From: Simmondsia chinensis
Lineage: Eukaryota > Streptophyta > Magnoliopsida > Caryophyllales > Simmondsiaceae
Assembly (NCBI GenBank): GCA_018398585.1
Contig: JAGTTD010000006.1
Coordinates: forward strand, 6,398,501-6,462,500
Length of the DNA: 64,000 nt
Direction: 5' to 3'
Both the position numbers and the translations under genes were made by a program. The notes beneath the pieces are model-generated. The model did not search any database and was not told the origin of the DNA. It saw only the letters and a program-made list of their open reading frames with translations. Below are positions 3,129-26,000 of the stretch, in pieces. Each line of letters starts with the position of its first letter. Positions within the stretch are counted from its first letter, which is position 1.

Positions 3129-3669
3129 CAAATATATTTAAATTTCTTCTAATCCAACTATTTTCATGAATCTCATATTTTATATTATCCTCGTACGTTC
3201 CTAATAGTGAAAAGGCAAGCGACACGACGACCAAGACTCTCTGCAATACAAGCTGAATTAGGAAAAAAGTGGACCCACACCACCCATTCACCAGAACACC
3301 TTCCTACGCAAGACTAACAGCCAAGCTCCATCAACTCAATTTGCATCAGAGTTAATTTTAGGGAAGCCCACCGGCAGTCTGGACCATCAAACCGGTCCAA
3401 CAGCAGCAACAGGCCGCGTTTGGTGGTCTTCAGCCAAAGATCAGAATTTTGAAGCTTCAAGGCAAGCTCTACCCGCCACCCAACCAGGGTCATCGTTTAT
3501 TTCTTGAAAAACAAACCTGCACTGAGATTTCTATAACCACGAACAAAGAAAGATAATTTTAGCCATTAGCAGAGGATCGTCAAAAAAGACGTTGATGTAA
3601 CGAATTCTCGCCATCCAAGAAAACTTAGAAAGCCTACAAAAGATGATTTAAACCAAACATCAATGGCAA
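3129..3669. other. Intergenic DNA, nothing firm
   Basis: No open frame or repeat boundary is convincing. It could be diverged retroelement sequence continuing from the copia LTR family, or the 5' part of the 5S-related element that follows. Confidence 0.3.
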
Positions 3670-3763
3670 GCTAATGCATTTGATCCCATTAGAACTCCGA
3701 AGTTAGGCGTGCTTGGGCGAGAGTAGTACCAGGATGAGTGACCTCCTGGGAAGTTCTCGTGTT
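3670..3763 (+). pseudogene. 5S rRNA-derived sequence (possible Cassandra-type LTR remnant)
   Basis: About 94 bp match plant 5S rRNA in sense orientation, including AGAACTCCGAAGTTA, GCGTGCTTGGGCGAGAGTAG and GTGACCTCCTGGGAAGT, with scattered substitutions. The first ~20 nt of 5S are absent. Single dispersed 5S copies in plants are typical of Cassandra terminal-repeat retrotransposons, which carry 5S in their LTRs; a lone 5S pseudogene or a SINE head are alternatives. No SINE tail follows it, unlike the copies at 31763 and 37870. I could not fix LTR boundaries. Confidence 0.7.
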
Positions 3764-3991
3764 ACCAACTCTATAGTTAAAAAAAAATTACTGTTTATAC
3801 GTCCATTGGACTCCGTTTTAAAGCGAAAGCCGTTTTAAACGGCGTCTGTCCAACACCCCTCGTCGTACGCCATTTTAAACGGCGTTTGCTGAATATGCTA
3901 TAGTAATCTTTGCCAGTTTGGTAAATATTTTTCTGATTGTGCTATTTTAATAAATATTTTTAAACATTATGCTACTTTGGTAAAAAAAAAT

Positions 3992-4310
3992 GGGAAATCG
4001 TACGGATTGGACCCCCAAGCCCCCCCTTAATGTTTTTTAGACCCCTTTAACCATAAATAGACTCTTTTGGACAAAAATGCCCTCCCACCTCACCCCCCCC
4101 CCATCCGTCCCCTCTCTCTCTCTCTTTCTCTCTCCTCATTTAATGCAAGGCAGGCAAAAGTACACTCTTTTGACCTTTCACTCTCCTTTTCTTCATTTTT
4201 TTTTTTCCTTTTGAATTTTTTTTTGTCCAAAAAAAAATATAATTTCCAAATTTGCCCTTTCTTCTTCTTCCCTCCCAGACCTTGTTTAGGCGTGCTAGAA
4301 GTAATTAATA
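3992..4310 (+). repeat. Left terminal inverted repeat of the giant MULE, unique part
   Basis: This unique terminal segment matches 21320-21629 in inverse orientation almost base for base, including its poly-C, CT-repeat and T-rich tracts. The palindromic array begins directly inside it. Confidence 0.85.
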
Positions 4311-6780
4311 AAATCATACACTGGGTATGATTCCTTTTAATGGTGTAAAATGAGCTTATTCAGGTGTATCAGAAGAAATTAGTGGTAAAAGACTTATCAT
4401 ACACAATGTATGATAGGTTATAATGGCATAAAATTAACTTTTGCTTTTTGTTTCAAGTAATTAGACGTACAGTTGGATGAAATCGAATCATACACTGGGT
4501 ATGATGCGTTTTAATGGTGTAAAATGAACTTATTCAGGTGTATTCCAAGCAATTAGTGGTAAATGACTTGTCATACACAATGTATGATAGGTTATAATGG
4601 CATAAAATCAACTTTTACTGTTTTTTTCAAGTAATTACTGTTACAGTGGGCTGAAATCGAATCATACAATGGGTATGATGAGTTAAAATGGTGTAAAATA
4701 AACTTATTTAGGTGTAGTTCAAGCAATTAGTGGTAAATGCCTTGTCATACACAATGTATGATAGGTTATAATGGCAAAAAATTAACTTTTGCTTTTTTTT
4801 CAAGTAATTACTGTTACAGTGGGCTGAAATCTAATCATACAATGGGTATGATACTCTGAAATGGTCTAAAATGAACCTTTTCAGGTTTTATTAAAACAAT
4901 TAGTGGTAAATGACTTATCATACACAATATATGATAGGTTATAATCGCATGAAATCAACTGTTGCTGTTTTTTTTCAAGTAATTAGACGTACAGTGGGAT
5001 GAAATCGAATCATACACTAGGTATGATGCGTTTTAATGGTGTAAAATAAACTTATTCAGGTGTATTACAAGAAATTAGTGGTAAATGACTTGTCATACAC
5101 AATGTATGATAGGTTATAATGGCATAAAATCAACTTTTGCTATTTTTTTCAACTAATTACTGTTACAGTGGGATGAAATCGAATCATACAATGGGTATGA
5201 TACATTTTAATGGTGTAAAATTAACTTATTCAGGTTCTTTTCAAGCAATTAGTTGTAAATGACTTATCATACATAATGTAGGATAGGTTATAATGTCAAA
5301 AAATCAACTTTTACTGGTTTTTACTTCTAATTACTGTTACAGAGGGCTGAATCGAATCATACAATGGGTATGATGTGTTTTAATGGTGTAAAATGAACTT
5401 ATTCAGGTTTATTTCAAGCAATTAGTTGTAAATCACTTATCATACACAAATTATTATAGGTGTTAATGGCATAAAATTAACTTTTGCTGTTTTTTTCAAG
5501 TAATTAGGGGTAAGTGGTCTGAAATCGTATCATACACTGGGTATGATTCGTTTTAATGGTTTAAAATAAACTTATTCAGGTTTATTATAAGAAATTAGTG
5601 GTAAATGACTTGTCATACACAATGTATGATAGGTTATAATGGCATAAAATCAACTTTTACTGGTTTTTTTCAACTAATTACTGTTACAGTGGGATGAAAT
5701 CGAATCATACAATGGGTATGATACATTTTAATGTTGTAAAATGAACTTACTCAGGTGTTTTTCAAGCAATTAGTTGTAAATGACTTATCATACACAATGT
5801 ATGATAGGTTATAATGTCAACAAATCAACTTTTACTGGTTTTTACTTCTAATTACTGTTACAGAGGGCTGAATCGAATCATACAATGGGTATGATGTGTT
5901 TTAATGGTGTAAAATGAATTTATTCAGGTTTATTTCAAGCAATTAGTTGTAAATCACTTATCATACACAAATTATTATAGGTGTTAATGGCATAAAATTA
6001 ACTTTTGCTTTTTTTTCAAGTAATTAGGGGTAAGTGGTCTGAAATCGAATCATACACTGGGTATGATTCGTTTTAATGGTTTAAAATGAGCTTATTCAGG
6101 TGTATTACAAGAAATTAGTGGTAAATGACTTGTAATACACAACGTATGATAGGTTTAATGGCATAAAATCAACTTTTACTGGTTTTTTCAACTATTTACT
6201 GTTACAGTGGGATGAAATCGAATCATGCACTGGGTATGATGCGTTTTAATGGTGTAAAATGAACTTATTCAGGTTTGTTTCAAGGAATTAGTTGTAAATG
6301 ACTTCTCATACACAATGTATGATACGTTATAATGGCAAAAAATCAACTTTTGCTATTTTTTCAAGTAATTAGGGGTAAGTGGTCTGAAATTGAATCATAC
6401 ACTGGGTATGATTCGTTTTAATGGTTTGAAATGAGCTTATTCAGGTTTAGTTCTAAACAATTAGTGGTAAATGACGTATCATACCCAATGTATGATAGGT
6501 CGTAATGGCATAAAATCAACTTTTGCTGTTTTTTTTCAAGTAATTAGGGGTACAGTGGTCTGGAATCGAATCATAAACTGGGTATGATGCTTTATAGTGG
6601 TGTAAAGTGACCTTATTCAGGTATATTAGAAGTAATTAGCGGTAAAGAGCTTGTCATACACAATATATGATAGGTTTTATTGGCATAAAATCAACTTTTG
6701 CTGTTTTTTTTCAAGTTATTAGGGGTACAGGGGTCTGAAATCGAATCTATATACGTGTAGTTCAAGTTTTATTGGTGTAT
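4311..6780 (+). repeat. Palindromic subterminal array 1 (about 172-bp units)
   Basis: About 15 units. Each has two half-units: one with TCATACACTGGGTATGAT then TTTTAATGGTGTAAAATGA, and one with TCATACACAATGTATGATAG then TTATAATGGCATAAAATCAA. The motif is an imperfect palindrome at every half-unit, and unit length is about 170-176 bp. The array mirrors array 6 at the other end and lies inside the element, so it forms part of a multi-kilobase inverted repeat. In MULEs, subterminal repeats are candidate transposase-binding sites; that role is inferred here. Confidence 0.85.
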
Positions 6781-6890
6781 GATGCACTTCATACACGGTA
6801 TATGATGGGTTATATTTGTGTAAAATCAACGTGTATTTGTGTATTTTAGTAATGTGTATTTAGAAAAAAAATATACATTTTGAGTATAGT

Positions 6891-7330
6891 AATCCGTATG
6901 ATTTTCCTTCAAAAAGGCCCTCCCATTCACACCCCCCCCCCCCCCCAACCCGTCCCCTTTCTCTCTCCTCATTTAATGCGCAGCCGATTACTGTACTTTA
7001 GCCTCTCTCCACTCCATTTTCTCTCTCTTCATTTAATGCAAAAGTACATATTTTTACTTTATGTCATGTAACTTGCTTCTCACTCTATTCCTCCCTTCTT
7101 CTCATTTCCCGCCTATTTACTCACCTCTTATTCATGGTATTTGTTACTTTTCTCTTAATCTGAATTCCCCAAGTCCATTTTTCTCTCATTTTTCTCTCAA
7201 TCTGCTACATTGGGCCCTCGGAAGAAGAAGAAGAAGAAGCCATTTTAAGATCGTGTTTGAAGCTTCGTGGCATTGCTGTAGGTTCAACGTTGAGTCCTTA
7301 CACACATTTCACGGTTTTCAGATTAGATAC
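6891..7330 (+). repeat. Internal copy of the element's terminal module, left
   Basis: At 6891-6907 the sequence AATCCGTATGATTTTCC is the reverse complement of the outer terminus with two differences. It is followed by AAAAAGGCCCTCCCATTCAC, a poly-C tract, CCGTCCCCTTTCTCTCTCC and CTCATTTAATGC, which repeat the layout of the outer terminus. The same module occurs inverted at 17870-18208. Its far side (about 7000-7330) is pyrimidine-rich and probably is the transposase gene's promoter and leader. Confidence 0.65.
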
Positions 7331-7399
7331 TGAAGGTAACATGACCATTTGCTGACATTGTCGTTAACGTATCCTTGTCCTATGAGGTCGGTGTGTTAC

Positions 7400-8880
7400 A
7401 AGTCGTTTATGGTTTATGATTGGTTTAAATGATGTATTATAACTTTCTTTTGGTGTGTTTGAACTCATTAGTGGTGTATGATTAGTCATATATCGTGTAT
7501 GATAGGTTTTAATGGTGTGAAATTAACTTGTTTAGGTGTGCTTCATGTAAATAGTGCTGTATGATCTATCATACACCGTGTATGATAGGTTTGAATGGTG
7601 TGAAATCAATTTGTGTTTGTGTATGTTAAGTAATTAATGGTGTATAATCAGTCATACACTGTGTAGGATTGGGTTTAATGGTGTATAACCAACTTGTGTT
7701 TGTGTGTATTAAGTAATTAGTGGTGTATAATCAATCATACACTGTGTATGATTGGTTTTAATGGTGTATAACCAACCTGTGTATGTGTATGTTAAGTAAT
7801 TAATGGTGTATAATCAGTCATACACTGTGTAGGATTGGGTTTAATGGTGTATAACCAACCTGTGTATGTGTATGTTAAGTAATTAATGGTGTATAATCAG
7901 TCATACACTGTGTAGGATTGGGTTTAATGGTGTATAACCAACTTGTGCAGACGTTTTTTAAGTAATTAGTGGTTTATGAGCAACCATACACTGTGTATGA
8001 TTGGGTTTAATGGCGTATAACCAACCTGTGTATGTGTATGTTAAGTAATTAATGGTGTATAATCAGTCATACACTGTAGGATTGGGTTTAATCGCGTATA
8101 ACCAACCTGTGTATGTGTATGTTAAGTGTATAATCAGTCATACACTGTGTAGGATTGGGTTTAATGGTGTATAACCAACTTGTGCAGACGTTTTTTAAGT
8201 AATTAGTGGTTTATGAGCAACCATACACTGTGTATGTTTGGGTTTAATGGCGTATAACCAACCTGTGTATGTGTATGTTAAGTGTATAATCAGTCATACA
8301 CTGTGTATGATTGGGTTTAATGGCCAATAACCAACCTGTGTATGTGTATGTTAAGTAATTAATGGTGTATAATCAGTCATACACTGTGTAGGATTGGGTT
8401 TAATGGTGTATAACCAACCTGTGTATGTGTATGTTAAGTAATTAATGGTGTATAATCAGTCATACACTGTGTAGGATTGGGTTTAATGGTATATAACCAA
8501 CCTGTGTTTGTGTATATTAAGTAATTAATGGTGAATAATCCATCATACACTGTGTATGAGAGCTTCAAAGGGTGTATGATGAACTTATTTTGGTGTCTTT
8601 CAAGTACAGAATGGTGTATGGCTTACCATACACCGTGTATGATAGGTTTGATTGGTCTAGGATGAACCTGTTTTGGTGTCTTTCGTGTATAGAATGTGGT
8701 ATCCTTAACCGTAGACCGTGTATGATTGCTTTAAAAGGTGTGTGATGAACTTATTTATGACTGTAACGCAAATCATACACCATGTATTCTTTCTTAAAGT
8801 AGTGTAATTTGTGTATTATGGTTTTAAACCAATCATACACCGTTTTTAGTGGTTTCGATGCTGTACTTTCATTCCACCCT
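7400..8880 (+). repeat. Palindromic array 2, upstream of the transposase
   Basis: About 15 units of roughly 60-100 bp, each with TCATACACTGTGTAGGATTG or the full palindrome TCATACACTGTGTATGATTG, followed by GGTTTAATGGTGTATAACCAA and GTGTATGTTAAGTAATTAAT. Several units are nearly identical, showing recent local expansion. The array occupies the 5' leader or leader-intron region of the transposase, because a splice acceptor (TTGTCCACAG) sits directly before its ATG. Confidence 0.8.
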
Positions 8881-8935
8881 AGTGTGTTTCATGTCAATTT
8901 TGCTTTGATATCATGTTTTTTTCTTGTCCACAGTA

Positions 8936-11624
8936 ATGGGTGATGCTGCTATTGCATGCGTTATGTACGGTGGCTACTTTAAGGGGAGGGCAAAGTACGC
9001 TGGTGAAAAATTGGCTTATATTTTTGTGGATGAGAAAACTGACTTCGCTGGTTTGAAAAGGACTGTGGCGGAGGTGATTGGTGCTCAGTTGGATGCGGGT
9101 TCAAAGATGCATTTTCAATCTTTTACCGCTGTTCCGGCCGTGCCCTTGTACGATGTCGTTGACGATAGGTCCGTTATGTTTTGGAAGGCACTAGCCAAAG
9201 AAGATAGGGCGAAGCATCCTTTGATCGTAACTGTAGAGTCATCCGGTGACAGGAATCCTAGCTTCAATTGGCAACGAACTCCCTTTCAAATAATTCCCGA
9301 TGGTGACGAGAATAGTGGCCGTTCGCACCCTGAGGTTCCCCAGACTTCTGGTGGATGTATGGATGCGGGGATGGAAGAAGCAGCCCGTGCAGATGCATCT
9401 GATGTAGAATTGAACATGCCTACTGTGACGGTTGAGGCAACAGCAACAGGTGGAGATTGGGAAAATTCCAATCAAAGTGCATAGGATAATTTGGACAATA
9501 TCAATTTATCCCAGGTGCAACCGACTGTACCTGATGCCTCACCTCCAGAGGGGCACACTTATAAGCATCGTAATATTTCCCGTAAAGACCCTCTGATTGT
9601 CGAACCTGAATTGGAACGGAATGCGGAACCCAGCGGTCAACCGAATGTCCACCCTGACATCCAAGCTGCTGGTGATCCTCGTTCTGATGATGAGGCTGGC
9701 TCCGGTGATGAGAGGAGCCGGATCAACGAGGTATATGCGCTGGGCCGAATGGTTGAGGATATTGAATTCGATCAAATATTTACGACGAAGAGGGACTTGT
9801 TGACTAACCTGGCAGTGATTGCGCTTAGGGAAAATTTTGAATTCAGGAGCTACAAGTCGAACAAATCCTTAACGGTTGTCCGCTGCGCACAAGAGGGCTG
9901 CACATGGAGGGTTCGGGCTACGTGTGTAGCAGATGGTGGCTGCTGGATGGTTACAAAAGTAGAAAAGAACCACAACCACCCTAGCGATCTCACCACTGTT
10001 AGACACAGGCAGGCAACCAGTTGGGTCGTCGGGGAGTGCGTCCGCAAGAAACTTGTGAACCTCGGGAGAGTGTTCAAGCCACGGGATGTCATAGATGACA
10101 TCCGAAGTTGCTACAGTGTCGATATCAGCTACAGTGTTGCTTGGAGGGCGAGAGAGTTTGCATACGACAATGTTAGATTGGGTACGGCCGAAGAGTCCTA
10201 TGCATTCTTGCCTGCCTATCTGCAAGTCCTCAAACAGACTGACCCCGGTGCCACATTTTATTTACAGACTGATGATGAAAGTAGGTTTCAGTACCTCTTC
10301 ATTGCGTTTGGTGCTTCACTTAATGGGTACCCGGTTTTGCCGGCCGGTTGTGAGCATTGACGCAACACATCTGAAGGGAAAGTACCGGGGTGTTTTGTTC
10401 ATGGCCGTTTGCCACGATGCCAACCAGCAAATTTTCCTGATTGCTATCGGCATCGGTGATTCAGAGAATGATGCATCGTGGCATTGGTTCCTTAGTAGGT
10501 TGAAGGAAGTAACTGGGGAGCCTGCTGGCCATGTCATTGTATCCGATAGACACCGAAGCATCCAACGCGCGGTGGAAGAACTTTTCCCTGTCACATTTCA
10601 CGGGCTCTGCATGTACCACTTGCTGAACAACTTGAAGGCCAAAGTCAAGAGCAACAGGAAGCATTTGGATCAGTACTACTACAACGCAGCCAAAGCATAC
10701 AACATTCAAGAATTCCATAGTTTGTTTTTCAGTTTATGTTGTGCTGTACCCGGGGCTAAAGATTACTTGGAAGATGTGGGACTGGACAAGTGGACTCGTT
10801 CCCACTCCCCTTGTCGTCGGTACAACATAATGACGACAAATATTTCGGAATCCATGAACGCTGTATTGGTCAAGGTACGTGGCTATCCAATTACAGCCCT
10901 TGTTGATGAGTGTAGGCTACTGTTGCAGAGGTGGTTTCACGAAAGAAGAGCCAAGGCTGAAGCTTGCATCAGTACAATGTCCCCCGACGTCGAAAAAAAA
11001 TTACAAGACAGATTCAAGTTAGCAAGAACGATGACGGTAAGCTCCGTACATATTGTCTTATTTTCTCATATTTTTGTATTTTGCATGCACCTTGGTTGTT
11101 TGACGCGTTTGTCTATTATTGTGGTAATGCAGATATTGCGAGCTGATGATCATACGTTCGACGTCATCGATGGGGAGAAAAACTTTGTAATAGATATGTC
11201 GCTCTGGACATGTACCTGCCGCAGGTTTCAGCTTGAGCAGCTTCCATGTGAGCATGCGTTAGCAGTGGTACAGCACAGTCCTTATGCTCTGTACAACTTG
11301 TGCTCGCCGTACTACAGTAGAGAATATTGGTACGAGTCGTATAGAGGTGTCGTCTACCCGATGCCACACATAAGTGACTGGCGTATCCCTCGTGATGTAG
11401 CTGACATGAATCTTCTTCCACCCGACGTTAGAACCTCTTCTGGGAGGAGGCGGAAGAGGAGGATTCCGTCTGTCGGTGAGGAGCGTGTTCATCAAAGGTG
11501 CAGTCGGTGCAAGGAACACGGGCATAACCGATCCACGTGCAAGAATCCAATTGCTCTGCATCCTAATGGCGAATGCACCTCATCCAACTCCGGCCGTCCA
11601 TCTCAAGTCCCTCCTCCAAATTAA
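8936..11624 (+). pseudogene. mudrA-like: MuDR-type MULE transposase, damaged
   Basis: The transposase would bind the element's ends and cut and join DNA in the nucleus. The ATG at 8936 follows a CAG acceptor. Reading on: an N-terminal MULE domain (GGYFKGRAKYAGEK), the Mutator DNA-binding domain (KNHNHP, about 9760-10040), the MULE catalytic domain with first Asp in VVSIDATHLKGKY, second Asp in VIVSDRHRSI and the Glu in NISESMNAV, a SWIM zinc finger (CTCRRFQ...PCEHALAV), and a CCHC knuckle (CSRCKEHGHNRSTC). A 96-bp in-phase intron with GTAAGC and TGCAG ends is likely at 11037-11132. Two lesions are visible: a TAG at 9482-9484 and a frameshift near 10325-10335, just before the first catalytic Asp. 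The 5' array could hold further exons. As sequenced it cannot give a full protein. Confidence 0.85.
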
Positions 11625-11888
11625 CTTATAGTCTTCAAATGTATAAATTTTACTTGTGACATACCTATATAATTTCGTTTTACCATAGGATTTACATTGT
11701 ACATTACCATAGGATTTACGTTGTATCCAGTGTACTGAAAATTGTCGGAAGGTTGTGATGTGTACGTAATAGGGTAATGAAAAATGTGTATATTTCCAGA
11801 CTGTTGTATATTCCTATAATGAAAGCTGTCAATGAATTGATTTGAAGTTGGTCCCAATTGTGTGTTCTAAGTGGTTGATGTGTTTTTC
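11625..11888. other. Transposase 3' flank between convergent genes
   Basis: AT-rich sequence after the transposase stop, with a short imperfect direct repeat (ACCATAGGATTTAC twice near 11680-11720). It is probably the 3' untranslated and termination region. The orientation of the palindromic units flips across this segment. Confidence 0.4.
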
Positions 11889-13410
11889 AAGTGTGTTACG
11901 ATGTATGTCGACATGCGTGGATGGTGTATCGCCACACGTATCAGCATCAAAGGTAAGTCATACACCACTAAGTAGTTGAAACACACTTGTAGAGGTTGAT
12001 TTCACACCATTAAGACTTGTCATACACTAAGTATGGTAAGTCATACACCACTAGGTAGTTAAAATACACTTGTACAAGTTGATTTCACACCATTAAGACT
12101 CATCATACACTAAGTATGGTAAGTCATATACCACTAAGTAGTTGAAACACACTTGTACAAGTTGATTTCACACCATTAAGGCTTGTCGTACACTAAGTAT
12201 GGTAAGTCATACACCACTAAGTAGTTGAAACACACTTGTACAAGTTGATTTCACACCATCAAGACTCATCATACACTAAGTATGGTAAGTCATACACCAC
12301 TAAGTAGTTGAAACACAATTGTACAAGTTGATTTCACACCATCAAGACTCATCATACACTAAGTATGGTAAGTCATACACCACTAAGTAGTTGAAACACA
12401 CTTGTACAAGTTGATTTCACACCATCAAGACTCATCATACACCACTAAGTAGTTGAAACACACTTGGACAAGTTGATTTCACACCATCAAGACTTATCAT
12501 ACACTAAGTATGGTAAGTCATACACCACTAAGTAGTTGAAACACACTTGTACAAGTTGATTTCACACCATCAAGACTCATCATACACTAAGTATGGTAAG
12601 TTATACACCACTAAGTAGTTGAAACACACTTGTACAAGTTGATTTCACACCATCAAGACTCATCATACACCACTAAGTAGTTAAAACACACTTATACAAG
12701 TTGATTTCACACCATTAAGACTCATCATACACTAAGTACGGTAAGTCATACACAACTAAGTAGTTGAAACACACTTGTACAAGTTGATTTTACACCATTA
12801 AGACTTGTCATACACTAAGTATGGTAAGTCATACACCACTAAGTAGTTGAAACACACTTGTACAAGTTGATTTCACACTATCAAGACTCATCATACACTA
12901 AGTATGGTAAGTCATACACCACTAAGTAGTTGAAACACACTTGTACAAGTTGATTTCACACCATCAAGACTCATCATACACCACTAAGTAGTTGAAACAC
13001 ACTTGTACAAGTTGATTTCACACCATTAAGACTCATCATACACTAAGTATGGTAAGTCATACACAACTAAGTAGTTGAAACACACTTGTACAAGTTGATT
13101 TCACACCATTAAGACTCATCATACACTATGTATGGTAAGTCATACACCACTAAGTAGTTGAACCACACTTGTACAAGTTGATTTCACACCATTAAGACTC
13201 ATCATACACTAAGTATGGTAAGTCATACACCACTAAGTAGTTGAAACACACTTGTACAAGTTGATTTCACACCATCAAGACTCATCATACACTAAGTATG
13301 GTAAGTCATACACCACTAAGTAGTTGAAACACACTTGTACAAGTTGATTTCACACCATCAAGACTCATCATACACCACTAAGTAATTGAAACACACTTGT
13401 ACAAGTTGAA
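11889..13410 (-). repeat. Palindromic array 3, homogeneous 83-bp tandem repeat
   Basis: About 17 units of 83 bp, read on the plus strand as AAGTCATACACCACTAAGTA, GTTGAAACACACTTGTACAA, GTTGATTTCACACCAT and CATCATACACTAAGTATGG. Some units lack the last part. Differences between units are few, so homogenisation or expansion is recent. The units are in the opposite orientation to arrays 1 and 2. The array lies between the two convergent genes. Confidence 0.9.
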
Positions 13411-13616
13411 GCCGTTTATTCCTTCCGTGTCTGTACAAGTGTACGGAAGTATACAGCCGCAATTTCCCCATCTGCTCTTGCGTGCATTGGGAGATGCTCA
13501 GTCCTTTGGTAAGCAAAAACTCTATGAACTTTACAACAAAAATTCCACAGTCTGACCTGCAGTTAATATTAATACAGATTTCACAGTCAGAAATTGTACA
13601 TCATTGCAAGTAATGA

Positions 13617-16600
13617 CTATTTTGCATCCACTTCATAACCAAAAGTCCAAATGAACAGAATAGTAAAATTGCATGAGAAGTAGATGTCATACCCCCCTTG
13701 TGGTGGACATTCATTCCGTTTGTAAGTTACCGAGAAAGGCTTGCCCTTGAACTGTATGAGGTCCTTTCGGACATCCCAAAAATTAACCAACGCTAGAGCA
13801 TGTGGAAGCAATTTTGCAATTGGTTCCACATGTTGTAATCTTGCTGCCCTGGATTTGGCGGCGTACAAGGAATCAAATACCTGTATCCGCCAATCATTAA
13901 GATGGATGGCAGCAAGGAACCAATGTTGATTAGGTTGATTAATGGGCATGTATATCCGATCCACGTTGTGGCAGCTGACCCCATACGTGGCATCCCCGGC
14001 AAGGAACTTAATGATCAACGAATCAAAGTCAGTAAAAGCTGACTCAAGCGGGATTCCACTGTTTTGAATCTGTTTTAGTAGGGGTCCAAATTGAGGAGCA
14101 ACAGTTGTGTCCGTGCATGTTGCCCTCTGGTCGAATTGCTCTGGCCACTGATATTTCTTCTCCAAAATGTAGTGCAGAATTACATCCATTTCCTGCGATT
14201 CAAAACTAATTAGTTGAGACAAGTTGATTTTACACACATAAATAAGTTCATTTTACACAGTTGAACCGTATGACTAATCATACACCACTCTTTATTCAAA
14301 ACACACTAACACAGGTTGATTTTACACCTTTAGCATCAACCATACACGGTGTATGACTAGTAATACAACACTTACTTAATACATAATAACATAAGTAGAT
14401 TTAACACAGGTTGATTTTACTTATTAGTTGACACACGGCAAAACTATCATGATGGGAAACATACCTCATCAGTAAGCCAGGCGTCCTCGTTTCTCAACCG
14501 ATACCAAAATTGACCCGTCGTCACAGTCAAAACAGAGAAATCCATTCGTTGATCATTAGGTAACGGAAAGGGGGTCTTCAAATCTCTGTAATATACAACA
14601 CCAAGCACGATATATAAGCATACCATAAGAAAGATGATTTCAGACCACTGTAACAGTAATTATTTGAAAAACGAGCAAAAGTTGATTTTATGCCATTAAA
14701 ACCTATCATACATTGTGTATGACAAGTCTTTTAACACTAATTTCTTGTAATAAACCTGAATAATCTCATTTTAAACCACTAAAACGAGTCATACCCAGTG
14801 TATGATTCGATTTCAGACCACTGTAACAGTAATTACATAAAAATAACTGCAAAAGTTGATTTTATGCCATTAAAACCTATCATACATTGTGTATGCCAAG
14901 TCATTTACCACTAATTGCTTAAAATACACCTGAATCGAATCATTTTACACCATTAAAACGCATCATACCCAGTGTATGATTCGATTTCAGACCACTGTAA
15001 CAGTAATTACATAAAAAAACTGCAAACGTTGATTTTATGCCATTAAAACCTATCATACATTGTGTATGCCAAGTCATTTACCACTAATTGCTTAAAATAC
15101 ACCTGAATCGAATCATTTTACACCATTAAAACGCATCATACCCAGTGTAGGATTCAATTTCAGACCACTGTACCCCTAATTACTTGAATAAAACAACTAC
15201 AGTTGATTTTATGCCATTATAACCTATCATATATTGTGTATGACAAATCATTTACGACTAATTAATTAAAATACACCTGAATAAGTTCACTTGATACCAT
15301 GATAGTGCATCATACACAGTGTATGATTTTCTTTCAGACACCACTAATTACTTGAAACACACCTAAGAAAGATGCATTCTAGAAACTTTTACATACAAAT
15401 TATCAAAAAGCATCGTGCAAAATCACACTCACTTAGCGACCGTTGCGTGGAAACTTTTGTAAAAATCTTCAAAATCTTCTATGTCTTTGTCGGAGGGAGG
15501 CTGGAATGGATTGAAGGGCAGAACTGGCTCCGGTCCAGGATGGGTAATTTTTGCCCGTTTGCTCTTACCCTCCGCAGTCCATTCCTCACCTTTGTACTTG
15601 GGGTTTGGCTTGGGGTCCCTCCTCTCTTGCCCCAAACTACACACTGTCTCGGACAATGTCAACAAGTTTTCAACGCCTTCGACATGCGGTGACGATGGTT
15701 CCTTGAAGACATTTTCCTCGGCCCTAGATGGCATAGCACATAGCAAAAGTCAATAAGCATCAACATGCATGAAAACATAACAAATTGGGACACTAACAAG
15801 GAATCTAGTGTCTTACCCAGTACGTACAGGAGAAACTATTATGGCTTGCTCAATCGGGGATGGATGAGCGGAAGTCGATGAACATAAGTGCGGCGATGCG
15901 GCCTGCGCTTGACGGTCTGAGAGCAGCTCCTTAATCAGTGCATCCTGTGCCTCAAACCGTCGTTCGTACATTTGCAGCATTCGCTGGTGCGCTTCAAGCT
16001 GCATCCGTACCATTTTGCACCTCTTTATCCATCGCTTCGAGTCTCTCCATAACCTGCAATAAGTCCTCCAAATTAGCATAATCAGCAAATTTGAATAATG
16101 TAGTATCCACACGGATAAAAATACGATTAAATAAACACAAAATAATTTATCATACCGATTGGTCCGCCGAATTGGTTGACGTAGGATACGGGTCCTCCCT
16201 GGATGCCGGCAACGGAGGTTGAGTTGCCAATGGTTGTGGCTCCTCACCAAGCTCTGCTGGCATTGCCATAACAGGAGATTGAAACCCCTCCTCAGCATCC
16301 TCAGCATAGGGAATGCCTTGTAGATTAGGCTGACCGGCTTCCGCACTCGTCAGTCTAATCGGTTCGGCATTCAATTGCTGATCAAAGGAAGATACATCAT
16401 ATACACGTTAGTAAAATTACAAAACACACTTCTAACCCAAAATATATGAAACATACAGTAGTAAAACAATAACAACATAGTGTATTTATTACCTGATCAA
16501 ATACCGTTGAGAGCAGAGCGGAGTACGGAGCCTTAACGGACATCTTCCAGTTAAGGATCCGCCCAAGAGACTGGTCGCCAACCCTCACCGCCCCAACCTT

Positions 16601-17434
16601 GGCAAGTTCTGGAAGGGTTTCCAGGGCAAATATGGAAACCACATCGTAGAACCCGTGGACGGAGTAGGTATTCTCCAAACCGTGGTGCATTCTTGCAGCG
16701 AAATCCTTGAGCTTCCGCACCAAGAATTTCCAGCTCAAGGATCCCCATGCAACACGATTGAAAGAGTCCACATCGTCCACGAGGGCCAGGATGTTCGGGT
16801 CAATGCCCGTTCGCTTGCGTTTGGCGAACAGTAGAACCTCGACCAGGTACGCAACAGCAAGCTTAACCTGGTCCTCCATGATGGAGCAGCTTCTGCATGC
16901 ATCAAAAAGCTGCTGCCTAGTCATCCTCCCCCTCATGCTATACTTGGCAACCAACCTGTTGGGACCACCGCGTATATCTTCCACACCGGCATATCTCAAG
17001 CCGGTGAGAATGCAAAACTCCCTCCTCCCAAGGTGCACTACCTTCCCACCAAATAAGAATGATAACTCCTCGGGATTGGGGTTGGCCACCTGGTGGAGAA
17101 GGACAAGGTGAATGAGACTATGCCAGAAGCTGACATTGGTCTCACTCAGCCCAAGCAGATGCCCGACATTGTATTGTGAGGCAAGGGCAAGCTGTAATGT
17201 AAAACACTTTTAGTTAATATGGTATCATAAATGTCATTGTCAAAAGTCAACATAATTAAAATGGATACAGTGTCAAACATTGGCTTCGTCGTCCTTCAAG
17301 ATTTCCTTTATCTCCGTGACAACCTTGGTTGACAAACCTATTTGGTTGATTTGGAGGAATTTTCAGAAACCCCTCGGGAAAATGTAATCAACCTCAACGG
17401 CAGGACGGCTGTTCCTACGTGTGTAAAATGCCAT
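13617..17434 (-). pseudogene. DUF1985 plus ULP1-like cysteine protease gene of the MULE, damaged
   Basis: Plant KaM/ULP genes carried by Kaonashi MULEs join an N-terminal DUF1985 to a C48 (SUMO-protease-like) domain. Exons read on the minus strand: about 17434-17285 (start ATG, in-frame TGA at 17363-17365), 16493-17191 (DUF1985: RREFCILTGLRYAG), about 16158-16385, about 15813-16040 (coiled coil around ERRFEAQDALIKELL, frameshifted), about 15429-15746, about 14466-14587 (RLRNEDAWLTDE) and about 13617-14190. The last has the ULP1 core with NQHWFLAAI (catalytic His) and VFDSL (catalytic Asp). The expected QxxxxDCG with the catalytic Cys is not found; CPPQGGYD runs into unrelated sequence. It is very likely inactive. 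The biological role of these captured proteases is not established. Confidence 0.78.
14230..15370 (-). repeat. Palindromic array 4, inside introns of the ULP-like gene
   Basis: About six to seven units of the same class as array 6 (ATCATACCCAGTGTATGATTCG, then TTTTATGCCATTAAAACCTATC). They are split by the exon at 14466-14587. The orientation is that of the right half of the element. Repeat units therefore sit within transcribed introns. Confidence 0.75.
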
Positions 17435-17439
17435 CTGAA

Positions 17440-17860
17440 ATAAAAGCAATACACCATTAACTGAACACAAACAGACACACTTTGGTTCTACACCATTGAA
17501 ACAAATCATACAGAGTGTATGATTGATTATACACTACCACTAATTACTTATAATACACAAACACAAGTTGGTTATACACCATTAAAATCAATCCTACACA
17601 CTGTATGGTTGCTCATATGAAACATGCAGAAGTTCATTATACCACAAAGGTCAATTTTACGTGAAAAAAAACCACAAAACATGCAGAAGATCATTTTACA
17701 CAAATAAAAAACACTAATCACAAAGCCACTAACACCAAAACCCTAAACCCTAACAAATACTATGCACTATGTTCAGGAAATGGTACGAAACAAACGGATA
17801 TTATACATTGGAGCACCAAAACCCTAAACCGTACAAAAATAACTCTTACTCACTTTCGAA
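17440..17860 (-). repeat. Palindromic array 5 and 5' flank of the ULP-like gene
   Basis: Two to three units at 17470-17640 (CATACAGAGTGTATGATTG and TACACCATTAAAATCAATCC) resemble array 2 in inverse orientation. Beyond them, AT-rich sequence contains short AAACCCTAAACCCTAA runs near 17740 and 17820. This is the presumed leader of the ULP-like gene. Confidence 0.6.
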
Positions 17861-17869
17861 AATGGTGAT

Positions 17870-18208
17870 TAAAGACTGGAGCAGCTATAGATCAAGGATG
17901 AAGGTGTGAAAACAGAGGTCAGACCCACGGGAACGACAATCGCAGCTGAAGTAGAGGAGAAAGAGGATGAACAAATTCGGAAAGAGGAGAGAGAAAATGA
18001 ACGGGTGAGAGAAAGAGGAGAGTGACTGGTGGCTTGTAAAACAAGTTGCTTATGGGGAAGACAGAAAGGCGGGAAGGGGTTTTACAGCTGTAAGTAAATG
18101 AGGCGAGAGCAGGGGTACGGATGGCATTAAATGAGGAGAGAGAAAGGGGACGGGTTGGGGGGGGGGGGGTGAATGGGAGGGCCTTTTTGAAGGGAAATTG
18201 TACGGTTA
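17870..18208 (-). repeat. Internal copy of the element's terminal module, right
   Basis: This is the inverse counterpart of 6891-7330: CATTAAATGAGGAGAGAGAA, GGGGACGGG, a poly-G tract, GGGAGGGCCTTTTTGAAG, then GGGAAATTGTACGGTTA at 18192-18208, which resembles the outer terminus GGGAAATCGTACGGATT. The purine-rich part probably contains the promoter and leader of the ULP-like gene on the minus strand. Confidence 0.65.
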
Positions 18209-18239
18209 TACTCAAAATGTATATTTTTTTTCCAAATAC

Positions 18240-21200
18240 ACATCCCAAAAATACACAAATAAACGCTGATTTTACACAAATATTACCCATCATACACCGT
18301 GTATGAAGTGCATCATACACCAATAAAACTTGAAATACACGTATATAAGCAGATTTCAGACCACTGTACCCTTAAATAAATGGAAAAACCTGCAAAAGTT
18401 GATTTTATGCTATTAAAACCTATCATACATTGTGTATGATAAGATCTTTACCGCTAATTACTTCAACTATACCTAAATAAGGTCATTTTACACTATTAAA
18501 ATGAATCATACCCAGTGTATGATTCGATTTCAGACCACTGTACCCCTAATTACTTGAAAAAAAACAGCAAAAGTTAATTTTTTGCTATTATAACCTATCA
18601 TACATTGTGTATGATAAGTCATTTACAACTAATTACTTTAAAAACACCTGAATAAGTTCCTTTTACACCATTAAAACGTATCATACCCATTGTATGATTC
18701 GATTTCATCCCACTGTAACAGTAATTAGTTGAAAAAACCAGTAAAAGTTGATTTTATGCCATTAAAACCTATCATATATTGTGTATGACAAGTCATTTAC
18801 CATTAATTTCTTGTAATACACCTGCATAAGCTCATTTTACACCATTAAAAACGAATCATACCCAGTGTATGATTCGATTTCAGACCCCTGTACCCCTAAT
18901 AACTTAAAAAAAAACAGCAAAAGTTGATTTTATGCCAATAAAACCTATCATACATTGTGCATGACAAGCTCTTTACCGCTAATTACTTCTAATATACCTG
19001 AATAAGGTCACTTTACACCACTATAAAGCATCATACCCAGTTTATGATTCGATTCCAGACCACTGTACCCCTAATTACTTGAAAAAAAACAGCAAAAGTT
19101 GATTTTATGCCATTACAACCTATCATACATTGGGTATGATACGTTATTTACCACTAATTGTTTGGAACTAAACCTGAATAAGCTCATTTCAAACCATTAA
19201 AACGAATCATACCCAGTGTATGATTCAATTTCAGACCACTTACCCCTAATTACTTGAAAAAACAGCAAAAGTTGATTTTTTGCCATTATAACGTATCATA
19301 CATTGTGTATGAGAAGTCATTTACAACTAATTCCTTGAAACAAACCTGAATAAGTTTATTTTACACCATTAAAACGCATCATACCCAGTGCATGATTCGA
19401 TTTCATCCCACTGTAACAGTAAATAGTTGAAAAAACCAGTAAAAGTTGATTTTATGCCATTAAACCTATCATACGTTGTGTATTACAAGTCATTTACCAC
19501 TAATTTCTTGTAATACACCTGAATAAGCTCATTTTAAACCATTAAAACGAATCATACCCAGTGTATGATTCGATTTCAGACCACTTACCCCTAATTACTT
19601 GAAAAAAACAGCAAAAGTTAATTTTATGCCATTAACACCTATAATAATTTGTGTATGATAAGTGATTTACAACTAATTGCTTGAAATAAACCTGAATAAG
19701 TTCATTTTACACCATTAAAATACATCATACCCATTGTATGATTCGATTCAGCCCTCTGTAACAGTAATTAGAAGTAAAAACCAGTAAAAGTTGATTTGTT
19801 GACATTATAACCTATCATACATTGTGTATGATAAGTCATTTACAACTAATTGCTTGAAAAACACCTGAGTAAGTTCATTTTACAACATTAAAATGTATCA
19901 TACCCATTGTATGATTCGATTTCATCCCACTGTAACAGTAATTAGTTGAAAAAACCAGTAAAAGTTGATTTTATGCCATTATAACCTATCATACATTGTG
20001 TATGACAAGTCATTTACCACTAATTTCTTATAATAAACCTGAATAAGTTTATTTTAAACCATTAAAATGAATCATACCTAGTGTATGATACGATTTCAGA
20101 CCACTTACCCCTAATTACTTGAAAAAAATAGCAAAAGTTAATTTTATGCCATTAACACCTATAATAATTTGTGTATGATAAGTGATTTACAACTAATTGC
20201 TTGAAATAAACCTGAATAAGTTCATTTTACACCATTAAAACACATCATACCCATTGTATGATTCGATTCAGCCCTCTGTAACAGTAATTAAAAGTAAAAA
20301 CCAGTAAAAGTTGATTTTTTGACATTATAACCTATCCTACATTGTGTATGATAAGTCATTTACAACTAATTGCTTGAAAAGAACCTGAATAAGTTCATTT
20401 TACACCATTAAAATGTATCATACCCATTGTATGATTCGATTTTATCCCACTGTAACAGTAATTAGTTGAAAAAAACAGCAAAAGTTGATTTTATGCCATT
20501 ATAACCTATCATACATTGTGTATGACAAGTCATTTACCACTAATTTCTTGTAATACACCTGAATAAGTTCATTTTACACCATTAAAACGCATCATACCTA
20601 GTGTATGATTCGATTTCATCCCACTGTACGTCTAATTACTTGAAAAAAAACAGCAACAGTTGATTTCATGCGATTATAACCTATCATACATTGTGTATGA
20701 TAAGTCATTTACCACTAATTGTTTTAATAAAACCTGAAAAGGTTCATTTTAGACCATTTCAGAGTATCATACCCATTGTATGATTAGATTTCAACCCACT
20801 GTAACAGTAATTACTTGAAAAAAAAAGCAAAAGTTGATTTTTTGCCATTATAACCTATCATACGTTGTGTATGACAAGGCATTTACCACTAATTGCTTGA
20901 ACTACACCTGAATAAGTTCATTTTACACCATTTTAACTCATCATACCCATTGTATGATTCGATTTCAGCCCACTGTAACAGTAATTACTTGAAAAAAATA
21001 GCAAAAGTTGATTTTATGCCATTATAACCTATCGTACATTGTGTATGACAAGTCATTTACCACTAATTGCTTGGAATACACCTGAATAAGTTCATTTTAC
21101 ACCATTAAAACGCATCATACCCAGTGTATGATTCGATTTCATCCAACTGTACGTCTAATTACTTGAAACAAAAAGCAAAAGTTAATTTTATGCCATTATA

Positions 21201-21310
21201 ACCTATCATACATTGTGTATGATAAGTCTTTTACCACTAATTTCTTCTGATACACCTGAATAAGCTCATTTTACACCATTAAAAGGAATTATACCCAGTG
21301 TATGATTTTA
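18240..21310 (-). repeat. Palindromic subterminal array 6 (about 172-bp units)
   Basis: About 18 dimeric units, the inverse of array 1: TACACCATTAAAACG, ATCATACCCAGTGTATGATT, ATTTTATGCCATTATAACC and TATCATACATTGTGTATGA. It is longer than array 1 (about 3.07 kb against 2.47 kb), so unit number has changed independently at the two ends. Confidence 0.85.
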
Positions 21311-21319
21311 TTAATTACT

Positions 21320-21629
21320 TCAAGCACGCCTAAACAAGGTCTGGAAGGAAAGAAGAAGAAAGGGCAAATTTGGAAATTATATTTTTTTTTGGACAAAAAA
21401 AAAATTCGAAAGGAAAAAAAAAAATGAAGAAAAGGAGAGTGAAAGGTCAAAAAAGTATACTTTTACCTGCCTTGCATTAAATGAGGAGAGAGAAAGAGAG
21501 AGAAAGAGAGGGGACGGATGGGGGGGGGTGAGGTGGGAGGGCATTTTTGTCCAAAAAAGTCTATTTATGGTTAAAGGGATCTAAAAAACATTAAGGGGGG
21601 GCTTGGGGGTCCAATCCGTACGATTTCCC
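21320..21629 (-). repeat. Right terminal inverted repeat of the giant MULE, unique part
   Basis: This is the mirror of 3992-4310, ending AATCCGTACGATTTCCC at 21629. Small differences from the left copy lie mainly in the homopolymer and CT-repeat tracts. Confidence 0.85.
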
Positions 21630-21638
21630 AAAAACAAT

Positions 21639-22606: not shown

Positions 22607-23071
22607 TTATGCTCTTTTTCCTTGTTTCTTCTTACTCTTCTTCATAAACAATGATAAATGCTCAATATCTCCTTTAAACGAAGGCGTATCACCAGTCAAC
22701 CACTGTATAGCTTCAGCAGCAGCATCTTTTTCAGCTTGTTTCTTGCTATTACTTGGTTGACCCACAAACTCCAACTCATTAAAAATAACGGTAGAACGAA
22801 ACTGATTGTTCTTCAGTTGTCGAGTCTTGTAGACAGGCGCCTCGTGTCCTGCACGTGCAAGCAGCGTTTGCAATTGGCTCTTCGAATTCTCAGCCCCATC
22901 TTTTGCATTATTAGCTTTTGGGGTGGATGTTTGCTTTGTTGTCTTTTTCGAGGGCGTTGGTAACCGGCGTCCAAAGACGAATCTACCTTCACATTGGTCT
23001 TCAGAGACTAGCAGTCTTACGGCAGATACAAGGTCCTCGTGGGCGTGGATGTCTAACTTGGGATCCAATAG
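22607..23071 (-). CDS. Helicase exon 19 (dsRNA-binding domain, stop)
   Basis: Encodes [20 protein letters not shown], a basic linker, and a dsRBD ([19 protein letters not shown], then [20 protein letters not shown] and AAEAIQWL). It ends in a basic [11 protein letters not shown] tail and the stop codon at 22607-22609. Confidence 0.95.
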   Translation of the reverse strand, partial: LLDPKLDIHAHEDLVSAVRLLVSEDQCEGRFVFGRRLPTPSKKTTKQTSTPKANNAKDGAENSKSQLQTLLARAGHEAPVYKTRQLKNNQFRSTVIFNELEFVGQPSNSKKQAEKDAAAEAIQWLTGDTPSFKGDIEHLSLFMKKSKKKQGKRA

Positions 23072-26000
23072 CTGGAGAAACGAGCACGGGTCAGTGAATC
23101 CTTGTTTCAATAGTAAAAGTACTGTTAAGCTTGAGATCATAGGAGAAGAGGTTCTGGGTTCAAGTCTGTTCAACTACAATCCTGCTTACGGGGTTTGTTT
23201 GCTGTTTTTGTTTTTTGCGAAGCTAAGGACCTTGGAAATGATTCTTTTTTTTTCCTTGTTTTTGGTTTCTATTTTCAGTTTTCATTCAAACTTGGAAAAA
23301 AGTGAACATAAAACGAGATAATAAAAAAATGGTTTTCAAAATCCAATTTAAGTTTTTTAAAAATCCAAAACTGCAAACAAACGATACCAAATAGGCCTTA
23401 ACGAACATGCCACCATGGATGAAATTTCAAATAAAATCAAAACAACAATTTGCTAGTATATGGTCACTTAGAGATCCAACCTTGAAAATGGAGATTGGAT
23501 TATGAACTGCAAAAAATAGTGGTAATTTGCAATTTCTAATTTCAATCAGCCTTATTAGTTGGTCGGAAGTGGGTATGAGAAGCAAGAATTTATATGACGT
23601 GGGTTTTTTGACTTTCTTGTGGTTAGTAGGAAGCACGTAATCGTTAAGAAGTTAAAACTTATTGTGAAAAATGCTACTGCTTCCCACAAAATCGAGGAAC
23701 TGAACCTAGGGAAGGATAATTTAAGTCCTAATGCTTGGGAAATTTTGTTAACACCTAAATTTAATGTCCCAAAAAATTCACAGGAGTGATTTAATAAGAA
23801 GTGCAATTTAGTACATGAACTTGCTTCCCATGCATGGAATCAAATTGCGACCCACAGTCACCTTGCAGTTGTGATCATGGAGTTGCACTAGACGGGTCGC
23901 AATAATCGCGTTGGGTTCTAAGGGATCTAAGTAGGGGAGTAAATGAACCGAGCCGGCTTGCGAGGTCACTCATCAAGCTCGAAAAGCTCTGCTCGTTTCA
24001 AGCTACAGCCGGCTCGTTTAGCTTGTCAAGCCAAGCTCAAGCCTAACGAAGCTCGAGCTCGTAGGCTCTCGAACCTAACTGCGCCTATTTTAATATAATT
24101 TATTAGCTTAAATATGTCCAACCAAGCCAAGAAATGAGCCTAGCTCAAGCCCAGATTGAGCTTAAATGAGCCCAAAATTTGCAAGTTCAGTTTGGAGCTT
24201 AACGAGCCGAATTCTAGCTTAACCGAGCCGAGGATGAGTCCAGATTGAGCTTGAAGTTTCTAAACTTGGCGAGCTTCGAGCAGAGTGAAATGTAAATGAG
24301 CCGAGCTTCGAGCCTGACGAGCTCGGACTCGAGTCGGCTCAAATACACTCCTAGATTTAAGTTACTTTTAAGCATTATATGTAAAAGGATGTATAAACAG
24401 TCCCAATGATTAAATGAAAATTGTGTCAAAATCTGTTATATAATGGTTGTTATGATTGTAATGTAACGGCCTTTATTTGATTCCCATAAGAACCAAAACA
24501 GAGCTTCACAATAGCTTAACCCAAAAAGGAATTAAAGTATTGCTGACCTTATTTTGGATTAGTTCTTCAAGCTCCCTCTTCAAGCTCAAGTAAGTTTCTG
24601 CTAAAGCAGGTTTCATGAAGAACTCCAAATATCCTCCCAACATTTTCAAATGCCCATCCTGTCAAAACGCAAAAGGCGATCCAATAATTTAGAACCAGAT
24701 AAAATAGATACAGTGCTGATAACATAGCAAGAGAAGTTTAAGAATCCAACCAGCCCACCCCTCGAAACATTCCCTCCGAAAAGCAGTAGTATGGAATCAG
24801 ATATCGCAGTGGAATCCCGCAAGAAGACTGTGTTCACTTTCACCTTTTCGTTGAAGACAAGCCATGGGTATGGTATCTTTTGTTCTTGTCCATTCACCGA
24901 GTTCTACAAAAAGCAAGAAAGGCGATTTGTTAGACAAAATACTCAAGATTTGGTTTGATCCAGATACTAATTTGTTAATTTGAGAGAATGAGAAGAGGAG
25001 GAAGAAACCCAATGACACAATAATTTACTTGGAAAATCCTCAAATGAGGGAAACACCATGCACAGAAGGATGAAAACTTCACTAAATTTGGAATGGACAA
25101 TTACAAACGACTCAAACTCACCAACTCTTTTCTATCTGCACAAAAGTCCTACAACATAATATATTGTGGGGACAAGAAAGCAAACGCTGGAAAATAACAG
25201 GTATAGTGACCAACCTAATAACAAGGTCCATACCATGGGGGCTTAATCCAAACTAAAGAATTGGAGATACAGCATAACACAAATCTTAGCAGAGCCACAT
25301 CAACATAGATGAGAAGGCACAGCTGCAAAAGGGAAGAATCTTACCGAATATAAAAGAACCTGACCATCCTCCATTGTCTTCAACATTATTGACTTCTCTT
25401 TGTTCTGTAAAAAAAGATCAAGATTAGTTATTGATAGTGAAAACATCCACTGGATCAATTATTGTCCTTTTCTTCCTAACCTCCAGTGATTTCATCAAAA
25501 ATCAAGGCTCCGTCTATTTGGATGGAAAAGCTTTTCCATCACATTTCAATAGTTTCATTATACAAATGAGTAGCAATTGTTACTTTAACAGAAAATGTTT
25601 TCCTCCACAAACAGGAATTTGACGGCCCCACTTGCAGAAGGAATTACATTTTGCTTCACAAAATGGAAAACATTTCTCATCATAAAGTCACATCTTATAT
25701 TTTACATCAATCTCAATTTGATCAAGCACGAATCTCTTATAAACATAGATAGCAAAAATTATTTTCCTTAGCTAAGCAAAAAATATATTTAATAAAAAAA
25801 TAGTTCTAGATGAAAATATTGAGAGAAAAAAATTTTCCAAATGACAAACCAAATGGAGCCTAAATGAAGTCAACCGGGGTCCTTAGCAGTCAATTTAAGT
25901 TGATTCAATTATCAGCTAACGCATCCCTTTCTCAATCAGGATTCCCTACTGAGCAAAACCCAACAATGACAAAAAGGAAAACTTAGATGATATCCCAATA

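What the first reader, a model, noticed from the sequence alone, without database searches (positions are those of the whole stretch)
4311..21310. One palindromic word, TCATACAC/GTGTATGA, fills all non-coding space of the element and switches orientation between its two genes
Six arrays (4311-6780, 7400-8880, 11889-13410, 14230-15370, 17440-17640, 18240-21310) are built on the same palindrome plus a TTTAATGGTGT/ACACCATTAAA word. Units left of about 11.8 kb read one way and units right of it the other, so the element is an inverted lattice with more than 80 palindromic sites. Possible roles are cooperative transposase binding, replication or hairpin-based small RNA production. This is the strongest candidate for an undescribed system in the window.
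Basis: partly seen in the sequence, partly recalled or inferred. Interest (0 to 1): 0.8.

Follow-up and report, generated by a model that had tools for sequence, protein, structure and literature searches.

The report
Transposon with repeated anti-silencing target sites
A damaged plant jumping gene carries about a hundred copies of one short mirror-image DNA word in its non-coding DNA, most likely landing sites for its own protein that blocks the plant's silencing of it: a known trick in an unusual layout.

Summary
The arrays are real. Window 3992-21629 is one 17.6-kb Mutator-like element (MULE), by its genes from a plant, with a 9-bp target duplication (8 of 9 identical) and inverted repeats about 3 kb long. 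It carries the dyad TCATAC-N5-GTATGA 105 times (2 or fewer mismatches; 54 perfect) against 4 times in the rest of the window; none overlaps a modelled exon. Four of the six arrays lie in matching positions of the inverted repeats, so most of the 'orientation switch' is TIR symmetry; the arrays between and inside the genes follow the right half. The element encodes a MURA transposase (+) and, convergently, a DUF1985-Ulp1 protein (-). DUF1985 is a domain of VANC, the Arabidopsis VANDAL anti-silencing factor, which binds short motifs in tandem repeats of non-coding DNA. Best explanation: a VANC/Kaonashi-type target lattice, bound by the element's own DUF1985-Ulp1 protein to block silencing. Differences: a palindromic motif, a dominant 83-bp spacing, and arrays inside kilobase TIRs, although TIR degeneration is said to accompany VANC genes. 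Binding and hypomethylation could not be tested here, and no relatives or genome-wide counts could be obtained. New variant of a known kind.

The parts
3992..21629 (.). whole MULE, 17,638 bp; ends GGGAAATCGTACGGATTGGA, identical 20 of 20 in inverted orientation
3983..3991 (+). left target-site duplication AAAAAAAAT (right copy 21630-21638, AAAAACAAT; 8 of 9 identical, low-complexity)
3992..7056 (+). left TIR arm: about 98% identical to the right arm to about 6750, about 90% to 7056, about 77% or less further in
18077..21629 (-). right TIR arm; about 520 bp longer than the left arm in its array
4311..6780 (+). array A1, 174-bp units of two dyads (spacings 83 and about 91), in the left TIR
7400..8880 (+). 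array A2, 83-bp units, upstream of the transposase gene
8937..11624 (+). MURA transposase gene (DBD_Tnp_Mut, MULE, SWIM); broken: stop at 9482-9484, frame change near 10.34 kb; probable intron 11038-11133
   Evidence: sequence read
11940..13410 (-). array A3, mainly 83-bp units, between the 3' ends of the two genes; 2 CG and 1 CHG in 1471 bp
13690..17434 (-). DUF1985-Ulp1 (VANC/Kaonashi-type) gene: DUF1985 in 16400-17209, Peptidase_C48 in 13620-14252; a last exon near 13.5 kb is uncertain; broken: stop in exon 1, frame change in exon 4
14230..15370 (-). array A4, in two introns of the DUF1985-Ulp1 gene; 14636-15328 is 85-86% identical to the TIR arrays
17440..17640 (-). array A5, two dyads just upstream of the DUF1985-Ulp1 start codon
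18240..21310 (-). array A6, 174-bp units, in the right TIR

Best explanation
The arrays are the binding lattice of a VANC-type anti-silencing system. The element's own DUF1985-Ulp1 protein would bind the TCATAC-N5-GTATGA dyads (probably as a dimer, because the site is a dyad) in the TIRs, upstream regions, introns and intergenic DNA, and so remove or block DNA methylation over the whole element, so that transposase and DUF1985-Ulp1 are expressed and the element can move. Arrays grow and homogenise by unequal exchange between units and by conversion between TIR arms. Shown: boundaries, TIRs, genes and domains, arrays, absence from modelled exons, lower divergence of half-sites than of the rest of the unit in three of six unit sets. 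Inferred: that this protein binds this motif, that binding is dimeric, that it causes hypomethylation. This copy is disabled in both genes and could at most be a target for the protein of an intact relative.
For: DUF1985 (E 7.6e-13, above the curated cut-off) and Ulp1 C48 (2.8e-11) on the minus strand, MURA transposase on the plus strand. VANC proteins contain DUF1985 and bind short motifs in tandem repeats in introns, intergenic and terminal non-coding DNA and upstream of the transposase gene (PMC5735166); Ulp1-bearing VANC genes (KIU) are reported to do the same for KIU elements (PMC13317346). Here the dyads lie in the same kinds of place and in 0 of 9 modelled exons. Half-sites diverge less than the rest of the unit in A6 83-bp units (1.5% v 11.0%), A1 83-bp units (1.2% v 10.6%; the TIR copy of A6, so not independent) and A2 (4.5% v 12.9%), each with 2 of 83 register shifts as low. 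Each array family has its own version of the central bases, as described for VANC21 motif subtypes.
Against: Half-site conservation is unremarkable in the other three unit sets: A6 about-91-bp (19 of 91 shifts as low), A1 about-91-bp (20 of 91), A3 (27 of 83). The units were cut at dyads, which favours conserved dyads. The element has long TIRs, unlike typical VANDALs. The dyad does not look like the known VANC21 (YAGTATTAY) or VANC6 (AGTTGTCC/AGTTGTAC) motifs. No binding, methylation or expression data; no homologue found.
Confidence: 0.68

Rival explanations
1. The dyads are binding sites of the element's transposase, multiplied in the TIRs; internal arrays are functionless copies spread from them.
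For: The largest arrays are in the TIRs, and A4 in the intron is 85-86% identical to the TIR arrays. Transposases of MULEs recognise TIRs (general knowledge).
Against: The array begins about 320 bp inside the ends. A2 and A3 have their own unit types, about 71-77% like A4 in the matched stretches, and A3 lies between the two genes, where end recognition needs nothing. One transposase site per end would do.
Confidence: 0.12
2. Neutral minisatellite: tandem repeats expanded inside a MULE by slippage and unequal exchange, with no binding protein; absence from exons only reflects selection on the genes.
For: Tandem arrays in TE non-coding DNA are common; conservation at dyads is significant only in some unit sets; node words are not more conserved across families than other registers (27 of 83 shifts).
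Against: Same dyad kept in three unit families with consensus identities of only 57-64 of 83 positions; half-sites diverge 3-9 times less than the rest in A1, A2 and A6 83-bp units; the second gene belongs to the type known to bind such arrays.
Confidence: 0.12
3. The arrays mainly feed small RNAs: the long inverted repeat, or single palindromes, form hairpins that are diced and set or regulate silencing.
For: TIR arms of 2.8 kb at 98% could give long double-stranded RNA; long MULE TIRs are described as siRNA sources (PMC10398659; PMC6446971). This could hold together with the best explanation, since VANC1/VANC6 targets and RdDM targets overlap in Arabidopsis.
Against: Single units do not fold better than shuffles: z 0.16, -1.72, -0.07, 0.04 for 4 units; two 17-base dyads alone give -4.8 and -4.3 kcal/mol. 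It would not explain half-site conservation.
Confidence: 0.08

Closest known systems
VANDAL21/VANC21 and VANDAL6/VANC6 of Arabidopsis (Hosaka et al. 2017, PMC5735166; passages and section 9 seen)
   Same: MULE with a MURA-type transposase and a DUF1985 gene; short motif multiplied in tandem repeats in non-coding DNA, including introns of the DUF1985 gene and the region upstream of the transposase; motif subtypes by array.
   Different: There: other motifs (not described as palindromic in the passages seen), degenerate TIRs (PMC10398659), no Ulp1 in the terms searched. Here: 17-bp dyad, 83-bp units, about 3-kb TIRs made largely of arrays, Ulp1 domain.
Kaonashi (KI-MULE / KIU) elements of Arabidopsis (via the review PMC13317346 and PMC2528002, passages)
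   Same: DUF1985/VANC-type gene with an Ulp1 domain, in reverse orientation to the transposase; reported sequence-specific hypomethylation of like elements.
   Different: KI-MULEs are non-TIR; here the TIRs are long and nearly identical. The motif of KIU elements was not available for comparison.
Ulp1-bearing MULEs of grapevine and melon (PMC2528002, passages)
   Same: Ulp1 sequence downstream of the transposase in MULEs, some with TIRs, in either orientation.
   Different: No motif arrays are mentioned in the passages seen; TIR lengths were not compared.

Membership tests
Mutator-like element (MULE) | MURA-type transposase domains | tested here: met
   MULE 2.2e-22, SWIM 1.7e-9, DBD_Tnp_Mut 8.6e-8
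Mutator-like element (MULE) | 8-11 bp target duplication and terminal inverted repeats | tested here: met
   9 bp, 8 of 9 identical; ends 20 of 20; TIR 98% over 2796 columns
VANDAL (non-TIR MULE) | absent or short degenerate TIRs | tested here: not met
   arms of about 3 kb; the survey PMC6446971 lists 46-174 bp for the VANDAL clade and says that some members have TIRs
VANDAL (non-TIR MULE) | transposase falls in the VANDAL clade | not tested
   no plant reference transposases were at hand; no tree built
VANC-type anti-silencing system | DUF1985 protein encoded beside the transposase | tested here: met
   PF09331, 49.1 bits against a cut-off of 35.1
[quoted passage not shown]
   105 dyads, 0 in 9 modelled exons
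VANC-type anti-silencing system | the DUF1985 protein binds that motif | not testable with these tools
   needs DAP-seq, ChIP-seq or EMSA
VANC-type anti-silencing system | binding causes loss of DNA methylation | not testable with these tools
   needs methylome data
VANC-type anti-silencing system | helical periodicity of motif spacing (recalled abstract of Sasaki et al. 2022; paper not held) | tested here: inconclusive
   53 of 104 intervals are exactly 83 bp (8 turns of 10.4) but 32 are 89-92 bp, not whole turns; 10.38-bp power of consensus units p 0.006 (A1), 0.0075 (A6, same consensus), 0.0035 (A4, 4 units), 0.065 (A2), 0.31 (A3)
Kaonashi (KIU) gene | DUF1985 and Ulp1 C48 domain in one gene, antisense to the transposase | tested here: met
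   both domains on the minus strand 13.6-17.4 kb, transposase on plus; one gene by exon model only, no transcript
Kaonashi (KIU) gene | intact Ulp1 catalytic triad | tested here: inconclusive
   only profile positions 81-139 of 217 matched; the exon that should hold the catalytic Cys was not placed with certainty

The most novel reading that the evidence does not exclude
A long-TIR lineage of MULEs turned its inverted repeats into helically phased, palindromic landing lattices for a dimeric DUF1985-Ulp1 anti-silencing protein. Within the 83-bp unit GTGTA-type words recur every 20-21 bp (offsets 9, 29, 50, 71 or 70), i.e. every two helical turns, so the protein could spread along one face of the DNA across TIRs, upstream regions, introns and the spacer. 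The same arms would be the host's siRNA source, so that silencing and anti-silencing compete for the same repeats. This would contradict the idea that VANC systems go with loss of TIRs.
Probability: 0.25. Interest if true: 0.65.

Novelty: new variant of a known kind. Interest (0 to 1): 0.45.

Why it matters
VANC anti-silencing is an unusual case of a transposon that undoes its own epigenetic silencing in a sequence-specific way. A version with a clear palindromic site and a dominant unit length would give a simple substrate for asking how a DUF1985 protein reads DNA, what the Ulp1 domain adds and whether spacing matters, and would test the proposal that VANC genes and long TIRs do not go together.

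Tried and rejected
Helical lattice: GTGTA words at offsets 9, 29, 50, 71 of the A2 consensus (a fifth at 44 is off the lattice) give P 0.0017 for random placement; but the unit families share an ancestor, and the word positions are not more conserved across the three 83-bp families than other registers (27 of 83 shifts as high). Kept only in the novel case.

Hairpin small RNA from single palindromes: not supported (4 units).

Homologues: one protein search with the spliced DUF1985-Ulp1 model found nothing at E<=0.001 among 7994 scored candidates; I suspect that the database holds few plant proteins. A viral-contig scan with the DUF1985 exon gave no relative. PDB by sequence: nothing for DUF1985 at E<=1; for the C48 exon 10 hits, best E 0.54, all named as SENP1 or XopD, proteases of this type. 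A single-sequence fold of the DUF1985 exon was useless (mean pLDDT 36), so no fold search was made.

Literature: searches (20 of 657 listed; 2 of 2; 5 of 5; 15 of 518; 12 of 15; 10 of 83, array words; titles only, none looks related to transposons; 6 of 6). No paper that I saw in these listings names this element, but few were opened and the listings are partial. Sasaki et al. 2022 (EMBO J), the key paper on Ulp1-VANCs and spacing, is not held; what I say of it is recalled. Of PMC5735166 I saw passages and section 9; of PMC10398659, PMC13317346, PMC2528002 and PMC6446971 passages only.
Full report
What is there. By its genes the window is plant DNA (plant-type MULE, DUF1985, a Copia reverse transcriptase; no species name was available). 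Positions 3992-21629 form one Mutator-like element. Its ends are identical for 20 of 20 bases and are flanked by AAAAAAAAT and AAAAACAAT, a 9-bp duplication with one difference (low-complexity, so weak on its own). The inverted repeat is unusually long: 3991-6779 aligns to 21630-18838 at 98.0% over 2796 columns. A global alignment goes on at 92% and 89% to 7056 and at about 77% or less further in, with many gaps; the right arm has about 520 extra bases in its array, about three 174-bp units. A survey of MULEs gives TIRs of 14-500 bp for the elements in its analysis (PMC6446971, passages).

The genes. On the plus strand lies a MURA transposase (MULE 2.2e-22, SWIM 1.7e-9, DBD_Tnp_Mut 8.6e-8). 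On the minus strand, convergent to it, is a multi-exon gene with DUF1985 (7.6e-13) and an Ulp1 C48 domain (2.8e-11) (exon model by eye). Both are broken in this copy: in the transposase a stop at 9482-9484 and a frame change near 10.34 kb; in the DUF1985-Ulp1 gene a stop in exon 1 and a frame change in exon 4.

The motif. The repeated palindrome is TCATAC-N5-GTATGA. With spacer 5 there are 54 perfect sites, all in the element; 95 of 96 at 1 or fewer mismatches; 105 of 109 at 2 or fewer. With spacers 3-7, 108 of 116 matches lie in the element against 2-8 in ten Markov-1 simulations of it. None overlaps any of the 9 modelled exons; arrays make up 9835 of 12,815 non-coding bases, 77%. Of 104 intervals between successive sites, 53 are exactly 83 bp and 32 are 89-92 bp. 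TIR arrays alternate 83 and about 91; A2 and A3 mainly use 83.

Orientation. The companion word TTTAATGGTGTA (2 or fewer mismatches) is forward 37 times and reverse 0 times in A1 and A2, forward 0 and reverse 52 times in A3-A6; 2 reverse matches lie elsewhere in the element. For A1/A6, and by position A2/A5, this follows from the TIRs. A3 (between the genes) and A4 (in introns of the DUF1985-Ulp1 gene, 85-86% identical to the TIR arrays) are extra: they follow the direction of the DUF1985-Ulp1 gene.

Is the dyad under constraint? Divergence of the 12 half-site positions against the unit outside the dyad: A6 83-bp units 1.5% v 11.0% (17 units), A1 83-bp units 1.2% v 10.6% (14 units, the TIR copy of A6), A2 4.5% v 12.9% (11 units), each with 2 of 83 register shifts as low. 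But A6 about-91-bp units 4.7% v 9.3% (19 of 91 shifts), A1 about-91-bp units 4.5% v 9.6% (20 of 91) and A3 0.8% v 3.0% (27 of 83) are unremarkable. Units were found through the dyad at 2 or fewer mismatches, a selection effect, though the TIR arrays show no skipped unit in the site list. So constraint is supported in part of the arrays only.

Mechanism. In Arabidopsis VANDALs the DUF1985-containing VANC protein binds a short motif (VANC21: YAGTATTAY, by ChIP-seq and EMSA) that is multiplied in tandem repeats upstream of the transposase gene and in introns of VANC and VANB; the protein is found in introns, intergenic and terminal non-coding DNA and causes loss of methylation throughout the element (PMC5735166). 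Ulp1-bearing VANC genes (KIU) are reported to act on motifs in KIU elements (PMC13317346). The present element has the same ingredients in the same places, so I infer that the DUF1985-Ulp1 protein of intact copies binds the dyads and keeps family members unsilenced. Binding, dimerisation and demethylation are inferred, not shown.

What differs. VANC-bearing VANDALs are described as having degenerate TIRs, with the suggestion that this avoids siRNA-based silencing of long TIRs (PMC10398659); some VANDAL-clade members do have TIRs, 46-174 bp in the survey, and Ulp1 MULEs with TIRs are known in grapevine and melon. Here a VANC-type gene sits in an element whose kilobase TIRs are themselves made largely of the arrays. 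The site is palindromic. Spacing hints at helical phasing (83 bp is 8 turns of 10.4; GTGTA words every 20-21 bp in the A2 and A3 units), but the evidence is mixed.

Limits. No plant relative, genome-wide count, methylome or small-RNA data could be reached; the own-genome search did not complete. The reading rests on domain identity and layout, not on binding data.

Noticed in passing
11940-13410: Array A3 has 2 CG and 1 CHG in 1471 bp (43 CG expected from base shuffles), so nearly all its cytosines are CHH; but it is essentially one unit repeated, so this is close to one independent observation.
   Followed up: partly
6891-6907 and about 18194-18207: Degenerate copies of the element's own terminal sequence, inverted, at the inner side of each outer array, followed by a stretch like the terminal region: each outer arm looks like a small array-bearing MULE of its own, or a duplicated end. 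Not resolved.
   Followed up: partly
3656-3770 (+), 31752-31869 (-), 37859-37974 (-): Three 5S rRNA matches above Rfam's threshold (45.7, 64.4, 75.5 bits), scattered; could be 5S-derived promoters of Cassandra-type retroelements (recalled), not checked.
   Followed up: no
16400-17209 (-): The DUF1985 exon also matches the plant mobile domain (PMD) weakly (E 0.0032, below the curated cut-off), hinting at a distant tie between VANC-type and PMD proteins.
   Followed up: no
22607-23173 (-): Frame with a double-stranded RNA-binding motif (1.5e-10) right of the element; probably a host gene exon.
   Followed up: no
61825-62883 (-): Copia-type reverse transcriptase (RVT_2, 1.5e-16).
   Followed up: no
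44051-47719 (-): GC-rich (about 57%) open frames of 954 and 267 aa with no Pfam match at E<=0.001.
   Followed up: no
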